This document shows positions 1 through 24,301 of a DNA stretch of 32,903 bases, in pieces. Under the pieces are notes generated by a model that was given only the letters and a program-made list of their open reading frames with translations, did not search any database and was not told the DNA's origin. The stretch covers positions 1 to 32,903 of the forward strand of contig JAISHW010000038.1 of NCBI GenBank assembly GCA_031262365.1, given 5' to 3'. Numbering within the stretch: the stretch's first letter is position 1; each line of letters begins with the position of its first letter. The position numbers and the translations under genes were made by a program. Origin of the DNA: Lentimicrobiaceae bacterium (GTDB taxonomy: Bacteria; Bacteroidota; Bacteroidia; Bacteroidales; F082).

Positions 1-2259
1 GTGCCATTTGCCAACATTGTCAGCTTCCGAATGGCGATTGTAAACAACGTATTGCGCTAACCACAGTTGCAAACCTTGAAAATCATTTTCAGAAGTTAAA
101 TTTATTGCTTTTTCACGTACTCTCGTTTTGATTGTTTCGTCGTATTCTCCTGTGATTATTTTGCTTATGCGCTCTTTTGTTTTTTCATCAATGGCTTCAT
201 ACGACCAATATTTTTCTAAACGCATCAACGGAAGCAGTTTTTTGATTGCTTTTTCGGAAAAAGAGCCATAATCGCTTTTGAAAGGCGGAAATTTTTTGAA
301 GTTTTCTACGAAAGAATCAACAAAAGCGTCATTGCGGTCTTGAGCCGTAATCGCCTCTTTGTTTGGGTGTTCCGAAACAAGTTCGGAATGACGTTTCGTG
401 GCAAAAGTTTTCAATGCCTTTTCAAACTCTATTTTATCTGTTACCGAATAGATTATATGCCAAAGTTGATATTCGGTTTTTGGAGTTAAGAAATTTTCCG
501 GCGCATTTTCAACTTTTGCCAATCGAGTCTTAATCATAGTTCCCGTTTCATTGCACGGATATTTTTTATCTTCAACATAATTCCAACGATATTTTTCTGC
601 TTCGCTTTTTCCTTTGATATTTTTTTCTTTCAACAGATATTGAATAAGCGGCTTTTGTTCAATTTCTTTTCTGCCCATTAAGAAATCAAACAATTTTACC
701 CAATCATCCGTGTTTTCAATAAATTGAGCCGAAACATCTTTGTCATCTTCTTTTTGATAAATTTTTAGATTATACAACCATTGCCATACTCTAAACTCTT
801 GATAATAAGGATTTGATTTTGGAATACCTTTTAAATATTCTTTAACCTCAACGTCATTGCCGTTTGCATCTTTTTCAAAAACATTTTTTATCGGATTTCC
901 TTTTTCGTCTTTCTTGTTGATTTTATGAATCACATATTCCAACGAGCAATTTCCGATAGACGATTTTTGACTGCGCAATGGTCGTTGATAAAAGATAATG
1001 TCGTCCAAAAATAAATGAACAAAATCGCGTTTGCTTAAAATAGTTTGTTGCGTTTCATTGCTGCGATAAAGTTCACGCACGCAATCGTTGTACAAATCGG
1101 CGGCAAACAGTTCGGGCTGCAATTCAATTTGCTTTTTAAGTATTTGACGGAGTTCGTCTTTATAAAATTTGCGTTCAATGGTGCGGACTAATTTACCACG
1201 AATTTTTTGTGTTGGGTTTTCCAATAAGGTTTCGTAAATATATTGTCCGACAGTTTTATTACTATTGCTAATTGTAATTTCTGTCCTTGCTTTTATCTTT
1301 TTATAAATTTTATCTTGTTGTTCTTTTGACATAAGATTAATTTCGTCAAATGAAGGTAAAGGAGTAATTCTGCGTTTTTCTTTTCCTGTGGTATCCGACT
1401 TTTTATCTTTTACAATTTTAATATTTCCATTTTCGTCATATTCTTCGGTAATTAAAAATTCTCTTTCTGTATTTAGCCAATTAGGTTCTGTTTGAAAGGT
1501 TGCCGAATATTCCCAACCATTTTCAAAAGTCATTTTATACCACGTTTTCTTATCATTCTTTTTATCTTTTTCTCCTTTTTCAATAGACACAACTTTCAAT
1601 AACGCACAATATTCTTTTGTATCTGTTTTTTCGTCGTCCTCGCCACGCAACTGATAATACCCACGTTTTTGGTTAAAATTCAATATAAGCCAAGCCAATT
1701 CTTCTTTTTCAAGTTTATGAGTAAGGGCTTTTTTGCGCAGGTAATAAATTGTCCAATCGTAAGGAATTTTCAGTTCTTGTCCGTTTGCCTTAAAATCCTC
1801 AACCATTTCGGCAAATGAATTTTGAAAAATAAATTCAAAATCATTTTTATTTTTCTGTTCGTTCCAAATTTCTTTCCAAGCGATTTTAGGCTCTTTTTCA
1901 TCCAAGAATTGTCCCAAGTGCTTATCAAAATCAATTTGAGCCGCATAATGCTCCGGCAAAAATCCTAACACATTCAAAACGCGATGCAAGCGTTCGCGAC
2001 GTTGGTGGTGGCGTTCATATAAACGCCTATGACCACGATAATCTGTTCGTGCTTTACATTTCGATACGCCATTTCCAGAAGCGAAATCACTTAAAGGGTC
2101 TTTACTTTCGCTGCCGTTTGCTGACGACACATAGCCTTGCATCGGAATAATCCGACTGCCCATACCAAGAATTTTGCCGCTTTTCGCCTCAAAATCCTGT
2201 TCTACTAATGCCCAGCCAATGCTGTTGGTTCCTAAATCCAGTCCGAGTATTTTTTTCAT
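1..2259 (-). CDS. cas9: Type II-C Cas9, N-terminal half (cut by left window edge)
   Basis: RNA-guided DNA endonuclease of a type II CRISPR-Cas system. The minus-strand frame from the ATG at 2259 is open to base 1, giving 753 residues with no stop. RuvC-I is at the N-terminus (ILGLDLGTNSIGWALVEQ, residues 4-21; probable catalytic Asp8). A strongly arginine-rich bridge helix follows at about residues 66-95 (SKCKARTD, YRGHRR, RRERLHR). Further on come a typical FRVWQWLYNLKIY segment, a GSFSEKAIKKLLPLMR segment and, at the window edge, a YNRHSEADNVGKWH stretch that in Bacteroidetes Cas9 precedes RuvC-II. The HNH, RuvC-III and PAM-reading domains lie outside the window. Residues about 623-645 look like a translated palindromic repeat. 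A tracrRNA candidate lies divergently upstream. Bacteroidetes II-C Cas9 proteins are usually about 1,400-1,500 residues, so roughly half is visible. Confidence 0.95.
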   Translation of the reverse strand, partial: MKKILGLDLGTNSIGWALVEQDFEAKSGKILGMGSRIIPMQGYVSSANGSESKDPLSDFASGNGVSKCKARTDYRGHRRLYERHHQRRERLHRVLNVLGFLPEHYAAQIDFDKHLGQFLDEKEPKIAWKEIWNEQKNKNDFEFIFQNSFAEMVEDFKANGQELKIPYDWTIYYLRKKALTHKLEKEELAWLILNFNQKRGYYQLRGEDDEKTDTKEYCALLKVVSIEKGEKDKKNDKKTWYKMTFENGWEYSATFQTEPNWLNTEREFLITEEYDENGNIKIVKDKKSDTTGKEKRRITPLPSFDEINLMSKEQQDKIYKKIKARTEITISNSNKTVGQYIYETLLENPTQKIRGKLVRTIERKFYKDELRQILKKQIELQPELFAADLYNDCVRELYRSNETQQTILSKRDFVHLFLDDIIFYQRPLRSQKSSIGNCSLEYVIHKINKKDEKGNPIKNVFEKDANGNDVEVKEYLKGIPKSNPYYQEFRVWQWLYNLKIYQKEDDKDVSAQFIENTDDWVKLFDFLMGRKEIEQKPLIQYLLKEKNIKGKSEAEKYRWNYVEDKKYPCNETGTMIKTRLAKVENAPENFLTPKTEYQLWHIIYSVTDKIEFEKALKTFATKRHSELVSEHPNKEAITAQDRNDAFVDSFVENFKKFPPFKSDYGSFSEKAIKKLLPLMRLEKYWSYEAIDEKTKERISKIITGEYDETIKTRVREKAINLTSENDFQGLQLWLAQYVVYNRHSEADNVGKWH

Positions 2260-2353: not shown

Positions 2354-2440
2354 TACTAATTTGAAAGCAATTCACAATAAGGATTATTCCGTTGTGAAAA
2401 CATTTAAAGCGGGAAGGTAGAAATATCTTCTCGTTTTTTT
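2354..2440 (+). ncRNA. tracrRNA candidate of the type II-C CRISPR system
   Basis: Short RNA gene of about 87 nt, transcribed away from cas9. It starts with an anti-repeat (about 2353-2378) containing CTAATTTGAAAGCAATTCAC, whose complement closely resembles the start of a 47-nt CRISPR repeat known from Bacteroides II-C loci (quoted from memory: GTTGTGATTTGCTTTCAAAT). Next comes a nexus-like hairpin: GGA/TCC around TTAT at 2381-2390, enclosed by CACAA (2373-2377) and TTGTG (2392-2396). The 3' end is a terminator hairpin, CGGGAAG (2410-2416) with CTTCTCG (2427-2433), followed by nine T. Promoter, anti-repeat, nexus and terminator occur in the expected order and spacing. An alternative is a degenerate stray repeat, but the promoter and terminator argue against that. 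The exact ends are inferred. Confidence 0.85.
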
Positions 2441-2442
2441 TT
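2410..2442 (+). terminator. Rho-independent terminator of the tracrRNA
   Basis: A seven-pair stem, CGGGAAG (2410-2416) with CTTCTCG (2427-2433) including one G-T pair, is followed directly by a run of nine T (2434-2442). Confidence 0.75.
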
Positions 2443-2466
2443 GCCAAATGTTTCACGAACACAAAA

Positions 2467-2667
2467 GGGAGCTTCTAAAATTCAAAAGATAAGGCTTGCG
2501 ACCGAGACAAAAGCGGAGTTTAATTCCGTTTTGCGGTCTTTTCCTCCTCGCGGCTCAGCATAATCCACAAGCGGCTTCTGCTTTCGCTCCGCAACGTCGG
2601 TTACTTGGCGTAAATGAGCATTTTGGCGAGGGAGCGTAACGCAGTATTTTGGATTTTAGAAGCTCCC
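2467..2667. mobile_element. Small TIR element, copy 1 (long form, 201 bp)
   Basis: Bounded by inverted repeats: GGGAGCTTCTAAAATTCAAA at the left, and a right end ending GGATTTTAGAAGCTCCC. The core (GGCTTGCGACCGAGACAAAA, GCGGAGTTTA, CTTGGCGTAAATGAGC, GTAACGCAG) matches the copies at 19352 and 24158. This copy holds about 81 extra bases between GCGGAGTTTA and CTTGGCG, bounded by TTA on both sides. No transposase frame is present, so it would depend on an enzyme encoded elsewhere. No clear target duplication is visible here. It fills the gap between the tracrRNA terminator and the lgt 3' end. Confidence 0.75.
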
Positions 2668-2699
2668 TTTATTGTTGTGAGAAAGAATTTGTGGTGGGT

Positions 2700-4804: not shown

Positions 4805-5896
4805 ATGAATGAACAACTGAAATATCAAATTGCTTTAACGCTTGTGCCAGGCGTGGGTGATGTTTTAGGAAAAAAACTTGTGGCATATTGTGGCGGTGCA
4901 GAAGCTGTTTTTTTGGAAAAAAAATCATCGCTCGAAAAAATTCCCGGAATAGGAAGCAAAGTCGTTGCGAATATTTTAAAGCAACAAGTGTTATCGCGCG
5001 CCGAAGAAGAAATTGCATTTATTGAAAAACAAGACATTCAACCGTTTTTTTATCTTGATAAAGCCTATCCAAAACGCTTGCAACAATGCGCCGACGGTCC
5101 GATAATGCTTTATTACAAAGGCAATGTCGATTTGAACCACGAGCGTGTCATTGGTGTTGTCGGGACGCGCAACGCGACCACTTACGGAAAACAAGTGTGT
5201 GAACAAATTGCCGAACAATTATCCGATGATAAAATTTTAGTTGTGAGTGGATTAGCTTACGGAATCGATAGTTTTGCACACCGTGCCGCTCTGAAATCGG
5301 GATTGCCGACCGTTGGTGTTTTGGCACATGGATTAGATAGACTTTATCCGGCGCAAAACAAACAATTAGCTGATAAAATGCTCGAAAATGGTGGTTTGTT
5401 GACGGAGTTTCTGACGAAAACAAATCCTGACAGAGAAAATTTCCCACGACGCAATCGCATTGTCGCCGGAATGATTGATGCTTTGATTGTTGTTGAATCG
5501 GCATCGCGAGGTGGTGCTCTGATTACTGCCGAAATTGCCAATTCGTATAATCGCGATGTATTTGCCATTCCCGGAAAAGTGGGCGATACGTATAGCGAAG
5601 GATGCAATTACCTAATCCGCACAAACAGAGCGCATTTGATGGAAAAAGCCGATCATCTGCGTTATATCATGCGTTGGGACGATAAGCCGAAAGCAATTCA
5701 AATGCAAATTTTCAGAAACTTTACGGAAGAAGAAACATTGATAATGCATGTTTTTGGCGATGAAACGATTTGTTCGATCGACGAAATGATTGTAAAAACG
5801 AACCTGACCACAACAAAAATTGCTTCGATACTGCTTTCGCTCGAATTCGATGGCGTGTTGTTGGCGTTGCCGGGGAAAAGATATCAGAAATTGTAA
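4805..5896 (+). CDS. dprA: DNA-processing protein DprA (Smf)
   Basis: Cytoplasmic single-strand DNA-binding protein that protects incoming DNA and loads RecA during natural transformation. The 363-residue protein starts with a helix-hairpin-helix region (LVPGVGDVLGKKLV, IPGIGSKVVANIL). The Rossmann-like DprA core follows, with VIGVVGTRNATTYG, VVSGLAYGIDSFAHRAAL, VLAHGLDRLYP and FPRRNRIVAGM, then a GGALITAEIA segment and a C-terminal winged-helix-like tail. A longer frame begins at 4736, but the promoter box at 4792-4799 lies inside that extension, so ATG 4805 is chosen. It is divergent from the glycosyltransferase gene and followed after 120 bases by rsgA. Confidence 0.95.
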   Translation: MNEQLKYQIALTLVPGVGDVLGKKLVAYCGGAEAVFLEKKSSLEKIPGIGSKVVANILKQQVLSRAEEEIAFIEKQDIQPFFYLDKAYPKRLQQCADGPIMLYYKGNVDLNHERVIGVVGTRNATTYGKQVCEQIAEQLSDDKILVVSGLAYGIDSFAHRAALKSGLPTVGVLAHGLDRLYPAQNKQLADKMLENGGLLTEFLTKTNPDRENFPRRNRIVAGMIDALIVVESASRGGALITAEIANSYNRDVFAIPGKVGDTYSEGCNYLIRTNRAHLMEKADHLRYIMRWDDKPKAIQMQIFRNFTEEETLIMHVFGDETICSIDEMIVKTNLTTTKIASILLSLEFDGVLLALPGKRYQKL

Positions 5897-5983
5897 TTAG
5901 CAAATAGAGAAAGAGAAAATGTAGGTTTAAGGTCTTTAGGCACGATTTCCTATTTTCTCATTCACTAAAATATTCGAAATAAC

Positions 5984-5991
5984 TACTTTTG
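5984..5991 (+). promoter_or_regulatory. -7 element upstream of rsgA
   Basis: TACTTTTG at 5984-5991 fits TAnnTTTG and leaves about 20 nt of leader before the rsgA ATG at 6017. No good -33 box is visible at the right distance. It probably serves rsgA, the CBS gene and the Omp85 gene together. Confidence 0.45.
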
Positions 5992-6016
5992 TCAATAAAA
6001 AAAGAATAGAACCGAG

Positions 6017-6949
6017 ATGCTACAAGGAATTGTCATCAAATCGACCGGAAGTTGGTACACCGTTCAAGACGAAAATGGGAAGTTTTGGGAATGTCGGTTA
6101 CGTGGAAAAATCCGTCTCGAAGGCATTCGCTCAACCAATCCGATTGCTGTTGGCGACAACGTGGTTTTCGAACAGGAAGCAGGAAAGGAAACAGCAGTTA
6201 TTAAAAACATGCTGCCACGGCACAATTTGATTGTCCGTAAGGCAACACGACTTTCGAAAGCATCGCATATCATTGCTGCAAATATCGACCAAGCCATTGT
6301 AATTGTAACAATAGATTTTCCGCGTACTTCGACAGGTTTTATCGATCGCTTTTTGGCAACTGCCGAGGCTTATCATATACCTTCGTTAATTGTTTTCAAC
6401 AAATACGATTTGTATGATGCAACACATCTCGGCTATTTAAATAAATTGATGCATTATTACAATGCGATTGGTTATGAATCGTTTGCTGTTTCGGCAGCAA
6501 CAGGATACAATCTCGAAAAGCTAAAAACTTGTATGACAGATCGTACAAGTTTGCTTTCGGGGCATTCGGGAGTCGGAAAATCGACTTTAATTAATTTAAT
6601 CGAACCTTCACTCAATCTGAAAACTGGTGAAATATCGCATATTCATAACAAAGGAAAACACACGACAACTTTTGCCGAAATGCATTTGCTTTCAGATGGT
6701 GGACGGATTGTTGATACGCCCGGAATCAAAGAGTTTGGTTTGTACGATTTAGAAAAAGAAACGTTAGCGCAACGTTTTCCGGAAATGCGCGAACGGATGT
6801 CGGAATGTCGTTACGCCAATTGTACACACATTCACGAACCCGATTGCGCTGTCAAAAAAGCAGTCGATGAAGGCAAAATTGCTTCGTGGCGTTACACAAA
6901 TTATTTGAACATGATGAGCGGTCAAGATACAAACGAAAACAATAATTAA
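6017..6949 (+). CDS. rsgA: Ribosome small subunit-dependent GTPase A
   Basis: GTPase that acts late in 30S ribosomal subunit maturation. The 310-residue protein shows the circularly permuted order typical of RsgA: an OB-fold at residues about 1-70, G4 as NKYD (128-131), then G1 as GHSGVGKST (182-190), then G3 as DTPG (233-236). The C-terminal zinc site has the expected spacing: Cys264, Cys269, His271, Cys277. It is first in a tight group; the CBS-domain gene starts one base after its stop. Confidence 0.96.
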   Translation: MLQGIVIKSTGSWYTVQDENGKFWECRLRGKIRLEGIRSTNPIAVGDNVVFEQEAGKETAVIKNMLPRHNLIVRKATRLSKASHIIAANIDQAIVIVTIDFPRTSTGFIDRFLATAEAYHIPSLIVFNKYDLYDATHLGYLNKLMHYYNAIGYESFAVSAATGYNLEKLKTCMTDRTSLLSGHSGVGKSTLINLIEPSLNLKTGEISHIHNKGKHTTTFAEMHLLSDGGRIVDTPGIKEFGLYDLEKETLAQRFPEMRERMSECRYANCTHIHEPDCAVKKAVDEGKIASWRYTNYLNMMSGQDTNENNN

Positions 6950-6950
6950 G

Positions 6951-7613
6951 ATGCTTGTTCGAGAACTGATTAGCGACGGCATTATGCCGTTGAAAAAAGA
7001 GGATACAGGTTGGGACGCTTTAAGTTGGATGGAAGATTTTCGCGTTTTGCACCTGCCTTTGGTTGATGGTAAAAAATTGTTAGGATTAATATCGGAATAT
7101 GATATTTACAACACTCATTATTTCGAAGAAAAAATCGGAAAAATTCCGTTGTCCGGAAATCCAATTTTTGTGTACGATTACCAACACGCTTTTGATGCGT
7201 TGAGCGTGCTGACTCAGAATCAGTTGACTTTGCTTCCCGTTTTAGACGAACATGAAAATTACATGGGTACTGTCAGTATGCAGGCGTTGCTGATGTTTGT
7301 CGGAAATTCGTTTTCGATCAGCGAACCCGGCGGTGTTGTCGTACTCGAAATGAGTATAAACGATTATTTGTTGAGCGAGATAGCCCAAATAATGGAATCG
7401 AATGATGCTAAAATTCTGAGTTTGATGATTCATTCCGAAAAAGATTCGACACGCATACAAGTTTCGTTAAAACTAAACAAAAGTGATCTGAAAGGAATTT
7501 TGCAAACATTGAACCGCTATAACTACAATATCATCGCTTCGTTTACTGACAATGCTTACTATGACGACCTCCGCGACCGTTACGATGCTTTCATGAATTA
7601 CCTGAATATATGA
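6951..7613 (+). CDS. CBS-domain pair protein
   Basis: Cytoplasmic protein of 220 residues with two CBS motifs in the N-terminal 130 residues (VLHLPLVDGKKLLGLISEYDI, about 33-53; LTLLPVLDEHENYMGTVSM, about 85-103), which usually bind adenine nucleotides. The C-terminal half (residues about 130-210) alternates strands and helices like an ACT-type regulatory fold; that reading is tentative. It starts one base after rsgA, and its stop overlaps the next gene by four bases (ATGA), so the three genes are probably translationally coupled. CBS proteins next to nadK are common in Bacteroidales; the ligand and target here are unknown. Confidence 0.85.
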   Translation: MLVRELISDGIMPLKKEDTGWDALSWMEDFRVLHLPLVDGKKLLGLISEYDIYNTHYFEEKIGKIPLSGNPIFVYDYQHAFDALSVLTQNQLTLLPVLDEHENYMGTVSMQALLMFVGNSFSISEPGGVVVLEMSINDYLLSEIAQIMESNDAKILSLMIHSEKDSTRIQVSLKLNKSDLKGILQTLNRYNYNIIASFTDNAYYDDLRDRYDAFMNYLNI

Positions 7614-9022
7614 CGCGAGCCGTTTTTTTATTGTTTTTTTTTAACGTTTCGCTTGCGTTATTTGCACAACGACAGATTGATATAGAAAAAGTTGTTGTAG
7701 GCGAAATTTCTTTTCTGGGAAATAAAGTAACCAAAAACAAAATTATAGCACGCGAACTCGAATTTTCGAAAGGCGATACACTTTCGACAACCGAACTCGA
7801 TCGTTTGATCGAATTGAGTCGGCAAAACATGCGCAACCTTTCGATTTTCAATTTTGTTGAAGTAGAAAAAACAGCCATTCAAATACCTGACGGAATAAAA
7901 ATGAACATACAGTTTATTTTTACCGAATGTTGGTATTTATTGCCCTACCCGAAAATAGAATTTGCCGATCGTAATTTTAATTCGTGGTACGAAACAAGCA
8001 ACTGGAAACGTGTGAGCATTGGCGGCGATATTAAGCATAATAATTTTCGCGGTCGTTTAGAACAGCTTAATTTAACACTTTATTTTGGTTACAATCAGCA
8101 ATTCGGTATAGCGTATCAGATTCCGTATTTGACAAAAAAGCAGAATTTTGGCATCGGTTTCGATTTTGCTTATATCCGAAAACGCGAAGTTGCCTACGAG
8201 ACTGAAAACGACAAGCCAAACTATTATTTTTTGTCAAACAAAATAGCGCAGAAATCGATTCGGGTAGGAGGGAAGCTCTTGTATCGATATGGTTTTCGAA
8301 ATTTACATACGCTGTATTTAAGTTGGAACAGCGACCGGTTTAACGACAGTGTTTTTGTATTGAACCCTGATTTTATGCATCGACCGGACAAAAAAAACGA
8401 TTATTTCACGGCATCGTATGTTTTTAGAAACGATTATCGCGACGATAAACCCTATCCGCTTAAGGGACATTATTTGGAATTGGAATTGACAAAAATAGGT
8501 TTGGGAATCTTAACTTCGGAACCGAATTTCTTTTATGCGAAAACGACAGCCGATTGGTATCATCATTTGGGCGGACGCTGGTACTGGGCATCGAATCTTA
8601 CGGCAAAAATTTCAGACGGCAATAAACAGCCGTATTATCTGATGCAAGGTCTCGGATTTGGGAACGATTTTGTGCGTTCGTACGAATTGTATGTTGTTGA
8701 CGGAAAAAGTTACGGTTTGAACAAAAACAATTTAAAATATAACATCGTAAAACCTAAAGTTCGCAAAATGAATTTTTTGAAAAGCGAAAAGTTTAGTAAA
8801 ATTCATTATGCTTTATACGGAAATCTGTTTTTCGATGCGGCTTACGTCGTCAATAGCGACAAAAAACAGCATTCGCGACTGCAAAACAAACTGATTTACG
8901 GCGGCGGTATCGGTTTCGATGTTGTAACCTACTATGATTTGGTATTTCGTTTCGAATATGCGATAAATATGTTCGGCAATGGTGGCTTGTATATTCATTT
9001 TGTAGCACCTATTAGCGAGTAA
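7610..9022 (+). CDS. Small Omp85-superfamily outer-membrane protein (one POTRA plus barrel)
   Basis: Predicted outer-membrane protein of 470 residues. A signal peptide (cleavage after FAQ, about residue 20) leads into a single POTRA-like unit (residues about 25-105: EISFLGNKVTKNKIIARELE, FSKGDTLS, NLSIFNFVEVE). The rest is rich in alternating aromatic strands, as in a beta-barrel. GLGFGNDFVRSYELY (about 345-360) resembles the conserved Omp85 loop-6 V-R-G-Y/F motif, with Ser in place of Gly. At 470 residues with one POTRA it is far smaller than the 884-residue BamA encoded 2.8 kb downstream. The start overlaps the CBS gene by four bases. Its substrate is unknown; protein or lipid insertion is possible. 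Confidence 0.8.
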   Translation: MTRAVFLLFFFNVSLALFAQRQIDIEKVVVGEISFLGNKVTKNKIIARELEFSKGDTLSTTELDRLIELSRQNMRNLSIFNFVEVEKTAIQIPDGIKMNIQFIFTECWYLLPYPKIEFADRNFNSWYETSNWKRVSIGGDIKHNNFRGRLEQLNLTLYFGYNQQFGIAYQIPYLTKKQNFGIGFDFAYIRKREVAYETENDKPNYYFLSNKIAQKSIRVGGKLLYRYGFRNLHTLYLSWNSDRFNDSVFVLNPDFMHRPDKKNDYFTASYVFRNDYRDDKPYPLKGHYLELELTKIGLGILTSEPNFFYAKTTADWYHHLGGRWYWASNLTAKISDGNKQPYYLMQGLGFGNDFVRSYELYVVDGKSYGLNKNNLKYNIVKPKVRKMNFLKSEKFSKIHYALYGNLFFDAAYVVNSDKKQHSRLQNKLIYGGGIGFDVVTYYDLVFRFEYAINMFGNGGLYIHFVAPISE

Positions 9023-19311: not shown

Positions 19312-19351
19312 CTTTGTGTAGTCATTGTGTCAACTCTTGATATTTGGAATA

Positions 19352-19472
19352 GGGAACTTCTAAAAATTCCAATCTCGGCGTTACGCTTCTTCAACAAAAT
19401 GCTCATTTACGTTAGTAAACTCCGCTTTTGTTTCCGTCGCAAGCCTTGATATTGAAATTTTTAGAAGTTCCC
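19352..19472. mobile_element. Small TIR element, copy 2 (121 bp)
   Basis: Inverted ends GGGAACTTCTAAAAATTCC at the left and a right end ending TTTTTAGAAGTTCCC. The core shares GCGTTACGCT, AAAATGCTCATTTACG, AGTAAACTCCGCTTTTG and GTCGCAAGCCTTG with the copy at 24158. ATA stands on both sides (19349-19351 and 19473-19475), a possible 3-bp target duplication. No coding capacity. It lies between two tRNA-Leu genes. Confidence 0.75.
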
Positions 19473-24039: not shown

Positions 24040-24301
24040 ACAATGGATGCCGTTCTGCAACGGCATGACCGGAGGCTGGTCTGCAACAACGGCATGACAA
24101 GGACGGGAAAGTCATGCCGGCGAAGGTCGGAATCCATTGTGCAAATGAAACACTTTAGGGTGTCTCTAAAAATCCAAAATACTGCGTTACGCTCACTCGC
24201 CAAAATGCTCATTTACGCCAAGTAAACTCCGCTTTTGTCTCGGTCGCAAGCCTTGTCTTTTGAATTTTTAGAAGCTCCCTTTACACACTTTTTTGGATAC
24301 T
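24040..24301. repeat. Dispersed two-hairpin repeat, interrupted copy
   Basis: Holds ATGCCGTT/AACGGCAT (about 24047-24066), a partly duplicated second CAACGGCATGACAAGGAC stretch, the TGCCGGCGAAGGTCGG hairpin region and AATCCATTGTGCAAAT. Its tail is split: ACACTTTA before 24158 and TTTACACACTTTTTTGG after 24279, with the TIR element copy 3 between. This repeat and the inserted element account for the gene-free stretch between rubrerythrin and the serine hydrolase. Confidence 0.8.
24158..24279. mobile_element. Small TIR element, copy 3 (122 bp), with TTTA target duplication
   Basis: Left end GGGTGTCTCTAAAAATCCAA, right end ending GAATTTTTAGAAGCTCCC. The core is collinear with copies 1 and 2. 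It interrupts the ACTTTACACACTTTTTGG tail of the surrounding repeat, which is intact at 9071 and 19583. TTTA occurs on both sides (24154-24157 and 24280-24283) but only once in the intact copies, so it is a 4-bp target duplication. No transposase is encoded. Confidence 0.88.

What the first reader, a model, noticed from the sequence alone, without database searches (positions are those of the whole stretch)
1..2259. Open-ended type II-C Cas9 at the left edge
The minus-strand frame runs without a stop from ATG 2259 to base 1, with RuvC-I, bridge helix and typical Bacteroidetes II-C recognition-lobe motifs. It marks a CRISPR locus whose nuclease half, adaptation genes and array lie outside the window. 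Because the frame is open at the edge it is easily missed.
Basis: partly seen in the sequence, partly recalled or inferred. Interest (0 to 1): 0.75.

Follow-up and report, generated by a model that had tools for sequence, protein, structure and literature searches.

The report
Ordinary Cas9 cut by contig end
The fragment is the front half of a normal, probably working type II-C CRISPR Cas9 gene that the assembler cut in two; the other half, its partner genes and its spacer array lie on another contig of the same genome, and the only less ordinary point is that the gene is a patchwork recently shared with a distantly related gut bacterium.

Summary
In detail: minus-strand frame 2259→1 is open and is the N-terminal half of Cas9 (TIGR01865; nearest solved structure CbCas9). 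The window is a whole contig, so the frame stops at an assembly edge. The rest lies on contig C23 of the same genome: RuvC-II, HNH and RuvC-III, then cas1, cas2 and an array of nine 47-nt repeats, with about 29 residues lost at the junction. No stop interrupts either half. With no cas4 or csn2 at the locus, it is type II-C. The edge is an assembler artefact: a distant Bacteroidales MAG's cas9 breaks at the same two bases, and each pair of contig ends shares exactly 119 bases, as expected from a k=119 graph junction. The cas9 is a mosaic: nearly identical to that genome's cas9 around the break although RecF is only 44% identical, while residues 200-330 come from another cas9 lineage. cas9 exchange, RhuM genes between cas9 and cas1, and 47-nt repeats are already described for Bacteroidetes. 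A new member of a known kind, of modest interest.

The parts
1..2259 (-). cas9, N-terminal half (753 aa): RuvC-I, bridge helix, REC lobe up to just before RuvC-II; continues on G000:C23 7713..5149 (-) after about 29 missing residues
2206..2250 (-). RuvC-I motif ILGLDLGTNSIGWAL with catalytic Asp (residue 8)
   Evidence: Ala at this site in the dead CbCas9 of 8iyq
1942..2049 (-). arginine-rich bridge helix, residues 71-106
   Evidence: PF16593
1270..1662 (-). residues 200-330 of the REC lobe: segment whose nearest relatives (L036/L038/L035) differ from those of the segments after it and just before it (L049); recombinant block
327..393 (-). in-frame palindromic (REP-like) insertion in cas9, encoding about RHSELVSEHPNKEAITAQDRND; shared with L049 and absent from the other three relatives aligned
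1..119 (.). terminal 119 bases identical to the end of JAISGN010000008.1 (L049); first mismatch at base 120: k=119 graph junction that made the edge
   Evidence: same pattern on the other side of the gap
2354..2377 (+). tracrRNA anti-repeat, complementary to the C23 CRISPR repeat over 24/24 bases
2378..2442 (+). rest of the tracrRNA: nexus-like stem, then terminator-like stem (2410-2433) and T-run (2434-2442)
   Evidence: similar tail upstream of cas9 in L049
2458..2676 (.). palindromic interspersed element between the tracrRNA and lgt; related copies at 19350-19472 and 24156-24282; not part of the CRISPR system

Best explanation
A complete type II-C CRISPR-Cas system of the long-Cas9, CbCas9-like Bacteroidota clade (proteins of about 1450-1650 residues), split over two contigs. 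Order: tracrRNA (window, +), cas9 (window 2259 to 1, then C23 7713 to 5149), three cargo genes (PNPOx-like, RhuM, Y1 transposase), cas1, a four-helix-bundle gene, cas2, then nine repeats with eight spacers. Inferred working, as for other II-C systems: the tracrRNA pairs with the repeat of the pre-crRNA, RNase III trims the duplex, and Cas9 carrying crRNA:tracrRNA cuts matching invader DNA with HNH and RuvC; Cas1-Cas2 add spacers. The gene parts, catalytic motifs and repeat:anti-repeat pairing are shown by sequence. Expression, PAM, cleavage and adaptation are inferred. The contig edge is a k=119 assembly-graph junction caused by a stretch shared with the cas9 of another bacterium in the community; it is not a truncation of the gene. 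The shared stretch reflects recent transfer and recombination within cas9.
For: Cas9 profile and bridge helix on the N half. A full-length relative finds exactly two pieces in the genome: the window (its residues 1-686) and C23 (717-1509), both without stops. C23 carries HNH_4, RuvC_III, type II Cas1 and Cas2 and nine 47-nt repeats with 29-30-nt spacers. Catalytic motifs GLDLGTNS, IHVELGREM, EHIIPKS and HRHHAMDAL are present. The window anti-repeat pairs with the C23 repeat at -34.8 kcal/mol, against a best of -17.6 for 500 shuffles and cross pairs at -27.4 and -22.4. Exactly 119 shared terminal bases with two contigs of one other MAG, on both sides of the gap. The C half of that MAG sits on a 74-kb contig carrying a recF only 44% identical to the one G000 has on C16, so that half is not G000's.
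Against: About 87 bases at the junction are not in the assembly, so continuity of the frame across them is inferred. C23 is a 7.7-kb contig assigned to this genome by binning; mis-binning is possible. No spacer hit in the viral collection, and no expression or activity data.
Confidence: 0.92

Rival explanations
1. Mis-binned pair: the window's cas9 continues into another C-terminal half, and C23 belongs to a different co-resident strain.
For: The shared stretch makes the graph ambiguous between two N halves and two C halves. C23 has lower G+C than the window (0.356 against 0.382), which is weak evidence because CRISPR loci often differ.
Against: The tracrRNA anti-repeat in the window fits the C23 repeat perfectly and the other MAG's repeat less well. 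The other N half and C half lie on 432-kb and 74-kb contigs of one MAG, whose recF and rRNA methyltransferase homologues are only 44% identical to those of G000, so by elimination C23 is the partner.
Confidence: 0.06
2. Broken or inactive cas9 (pseudogene) at the edge.
For: Part of the gene is unseen (about 29 residues).
Against: Both halves are free of stops, all catalytic motifs are intact, and cas1, cas2, tracrRNA and array are all present.
Confidence: 0.03
3. Member of the PcrIIC1-associated Cas9 systems, with a Cas9 partner protein that strengthens immunity.
For: The nearest solved Cas9 by far is CbCas9, the PcrIIC1 partner. The cas9-cas1 interval holds extra genes on the cas9 strand.
Against: None of the locus ORFs submitted to Pfam is a PIN-domain protein; they match PNPOx, RhuM, Y1 transposase and 23S_rRNA_IVP, one 67-aa ORF matches nothing.
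Confidence: 0.04

Closest known systems
CbCas9 (8iyq and related entries; Zhang et al. 2024, cited in PMC13153721)
   Same: Long type II-C Cas9; most of the length aligns with both halves (E 1.6e-238 and 4.2e-229).
   Different: No pcrIIC1 (PIN) gene found at this locus; longer protein (about 1636 aa against 1442 aa), with insertions in REC and C-terminal regions.
Bacteroides fragilis type II-C CRISPR-Cas (PMC5704556)
   Same: cas9-cas1-cas2, 47-bp repeats with spacers averaging 29 bp, and RhuM-domain ORFs between cas1 and cas9.
   Different: Here PNPOx-like and Y1 transposase genes share the interval, and a four-helix-bundle gene lies between cas1 and cas2.
Riemerella anatipestifer CRISPR1 (PMC5006608)
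   Same: 47-bp repeat; anti-repeat TGAAAGCAATTCACAA upstream of cas9, contained in the window's anti-repeat.
   Different: Only cas1, cas2 and cas9 at the locus; no cargo genes described between them.
In situ shuffling of cas9 in II-C loci of Flavobacteriales (PMC12669027)
   Same: cas9 exchanged independently of cas1.
   Different: Here the exchange is seen inside the gene, between two Bacteroidales apparently from one community.

Membership tests
Cas9 (type II effector) | RuvC-I/bridge helix, RuvC-II, HNH and RuvC-III with catalytic residues | tested here: met
   PF16593; HNH_4 and RuvC_III; TIGR01865 on both halves; motifs. The parts lie on two contigs.
Type II CRISPR-Cas | type II Cas1 and Cas2 | tested here: met
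   TIGR03639 321 bits over cut-off 120; TIGR01573 79 bits over 24.5
Type II CRISPR-Cas | tracrRNA complementary to the repeat | tested here: met
   24/24 complement at 2354-2377, -34.8 kcal/mol, best shuffle -17.6
Type II CRISPR-Cas | CRISPR array | tested here: met
   nine 47-nt repeats, spacers 29-30 nt, C23 165-824
Subtype II-C | no csn2 (II-A) and no cas4 (II-B, II-D) at the locus | tested here: met
   ORFs of C23 assigned; the window side starts with lgt. The only cas4 seen is at the separate type V-like locus on C104.
Subtype II-D (Cas9d) | score over the Cas9d model cut-off | tested here: not met
   NF049971 80 bits against cut-off 375, C half only
PcrIIC1-associated Cas9 | PIN-domain pcrIIC1 gene at the locus | tested here: not met
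   no PIN match among the locus proteins scanned; whole genome not searched
PcrIIC1-associated Cas9 | conserved C-terminal helix (CTH) that binds PcrIIC1 | tested here: inconclusive
   the C-terminus aligns to CbCas9 up to residue 1428 with gaps; domain borders not known here
Subtype II-C | RNA-guided DNA cleavage and PAM | not testable with these tools
   needs an experiment

The most novel reading that the evidence does not exclude
cas9 in these gut Bacteroidales evolves by frequent swapping of gene segments between distant bacteria of the same gut (natural chimeras: one REC block from one lineage; a RuvC-II/HNH block almost identical to that of a bacterium with 44% identical RecF), while each host keeps its own cas1, cas2, repeat and matching tracrRNA; and the same-strand cargo between cas9 and cas1 includes real accessory factors.
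Probability: 0.3. Interest if true: 0.45.

Novelty: new member of a known kind. Interest (0 to 1): 0.27.

Why it matters
It removes a false puzzle: the open-ended cas9 belongs to a complete, ordinary system. It also shows how identical segments shared between community members cut cas genes at contig ends, so that surveys of assembled metagenomes can undercount them. The pair of cas9 genes is a usable natural example of segment exchange within cas9, with matched tracrRNA and repeat on each side.

Tried and rejected
Rfam: only tRNAs in the window, so the tracrRNA was found through the repeat. Seven of eight spacers (22-23 nt of each) and a 54-nt piece of cas9 against viral contigs: no hit. Idea that the shared break point marks a mobile-element target or an invertible switch inside cas9: rejected, because both sides share exactly 119 bases, the k in the other contig's assembler name. 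Idea that RhuM marks CRISPR loci in this genome: not supported, since it has 10 RhuM matches and RhuM in II-C loci is already known. Cas12a for the second locus: no match, but the control was silent too, so undecided. Structure prediction not run: homology to a solved Cas9 is decisive.

Full report
OBSERVATION. The minus-strand frame 2259→1 is an unbroken 753-aa ORF starting with ATG. The window is the whole contig G000:C113 of a 2.23-Mb, 119-contig assembly, 92% complete and 1.5% contaminated. The frame therefore ends where the contig ends. It passes the Cas9 model TIGR01865 (161 bits, cut-off 100) and the Cas9 bridge-helix model. Its best solved relative is CbCas9, aligned in two blocks from residue 2 to 753.

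THE OTHER HALF. A full-length relative (G003, 1516 aa) used against the same genome finds exactly two pieces: its residues 1-686 in the window and 717-1509 on contig C23 7713..5149 (-). C23 begins exactly at its own edge with LRVVRDIW. Relatives have about 29 residues between GKW(H) and LRVVRDIW, so about 87 bases are missing and the protein would be about 1636 aa (full-length relatives are mostly 1450-1660 aa). The C half carries HNH_4 and RuvC_III and the motifs IHVELGREM, EHIIPKS and HRHHAMDAL; the N half carries GLDLGTNS. Neither half has a stop.

THE LOCUS. After cas9, C23 carries on the same strand: a PNPOx-like protein with a signal-peptide-like start, RhuM, an IS200-type Y1 transposase, cas1 (type II model, 321 bits), a four-helix-bundle protein (23S rRNA IVP family), cas2, and then nine 47-nt repeats with 29-30-nt spacers at 165-824. 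The last repeat has one change, and the 3' part of a tenth lies at 118. With neither csn2 nor cas4 this is subtype II-C. Forty-seven-bp repeats with spacers averaging 29 bp, and RhuM-domain genes between cas1 and cas9, are reported for B. fragilis II-C loci (PMC5704556).

THE tracrRNA IS IN THE WINDOW. On the + strand, divergent from cas9, 2354-2377 is the exact complement of repeat positions 2-25. It is followed by a nexus-like stem and a terminator-like stem with nine Ts up to 2442. Pairing with the C23 repeat is -34.8 kcal/mol; 500 shuffles average -7.0 with a best of -17.6. The Riemerella anti-repeat TGAAAGCAATTCACAA (PMC5006608) is contained in it.

WHY THE FRAME ENDS HERE. Among 39 relatives from GTDB genomes, L049 (JAISGN010000008.1, Bacteroidales Hm464_bin103, contig name k119_128163) ends at the homologous base of cas9. 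Counted back from the two ends, the last 119 bases are identical and base 120 differs. The same MAG has the C-terminal half at the very start of another contig, G061:C7; against C23 the first 119 bases are again identical and base 120 differs. This is the expected mark of a k=119 de Bruijn graph junction. It implies that the two cas9 genes share an identical stretch of about 325 bases (119 + 87 + 119; the middle 87 are unseen). The edge is thus an assembly artefact, and the two organisms were most likely assembled together (inference).

WHICH HALVES BELONG TOGETHER. The other MAG's N half (432-kb contig) and C half (74-kb contig) carry ordinary genes; its recF and rRNA methyltransferase are only 44% identical to those in G000, which has its own copies on other contigs. 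So the window pairs with C23 by elimination. The tracrRNA agrees: window anti-repeat with C23 repeat -34.8, with the G061 repeat -27.4; L049 anti-repeat with G061 repeat -27.3, with C23 repeat -22.4. In G061 the cas1, cas2 and array lie about 16 kb downstream of the cas9 end.

MOSAIC cas9. Against L049/G061 the DNA is mostly 97-100% identical from residue 681 through the first 200 residues of the C half, but amino-acid identity falls to 32-53% in residues 201-320 and to 42-44% near the C-terminus. Segment trees put window residues 110-200, 330-480, 480-610 and 610-753 with L049 (support 0.95-0.997), but 200-330 with L036/L038/L035 (support 1.0). Cas1 proteins of the two genomes are only 59% identical. 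Recent transfer of a cas9 segment between distant Bacteroidales, plus older recombination in the REC lobe, is the simplest reading; cas9 exchange independent of cas1 is known from II-C loci of Flavobacteriales (PMC12669027). A caveat is that assemblies of mixed strains can create false chimeras; blocks that are only about 90% identical are not what a simple assembly switch would give, but only long reads can settle it.

CARGO. In 10 of 33 loci of this clade in which cas9 and cas1 lie on one contig (this genome included), extra genes sit between them, in every case with the main cargo ORFs on the cas9 strand (counted by hand). They are diverse: REP-associated Y1-transposase-like (L016, L061, L063, weaker L068), RhuM (L039, here), YhcG nuclease, nucleotidyltransferase, ATPase and others. 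Same-strand insertion may simply be what leaves cas1-cas2 transcription intact. No PIN-domain PcrIIC1 was found at this locus.

MECHANISM. Shown by sequence: all parts of a II-C system, intact motifs, matched tracrRNA and repeat. Inferred from established II-C biology: RNase III processing, crRNA:tracrRNA-guided cleavage, and spacer capture by Cas1-Cas2. Not known: PAM, expression, targets (no spacer hit).

VERDICT. Observation confirmed and interpretation supported; an ordinary system whose only modest surprise is the mosaic history of its cas9.

Noticed in passing
G000:C104 (L034): array from about 1890, cas1 5671-6657, cas4 6626-7189, RhuM 7192-8133 (locus coordinates): A second CRISPR locus: Cas4 and Cas1 of the type V (PREFRAN) models and Cas12a-like repeats (ATCTACAATAGTAGAAATT). 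The contig ends just beyond RhuM; no Cas12a was found in the genome with TIGR04330, but the control was silent.
   Followed up: partly
window 327-393 (-): A palindromic REP-like element inserted in frame inside cas9 (CGTCATTCCGAA...CGCAATGACG), also present in L049; related GTCATTCCG/CGGAATGAC words occur in other repeats of the window (9031, 19541, 31570).
   Followed up: partly
window 2458-2676, 19350-19472, 24156-24282: Interspersed palindromic elements (GGGAGCTTCTAAAATTC...) between genes, parts of two copies 95-97% identical; a Y1/REP-type transposase lies on C23.
   Followed up: partly
L049 8001-10496: A REC insert looks tandemly duplicated in L049 (two similar copies of about 80-100 aa), making its N half 79 aa longer than the window's.
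   Followed up: no
G061:C7 1-2337 and 18833-21830: In the other MAG, cas9 is separated by about 16 kb of ordinary genes from its cas1, cas2 and array.
   Followed up: partly
L037 9556-10383: A protein between cas1 and cas2 with a weak IscB match (E 4.6e-10, below the curated cut-off).
   Followed up: no
G000, 10 places: Ten RhuM-family matches in one 2.2-Mb genome, two of the genes beside CRISPR loci.
   Followed up: no
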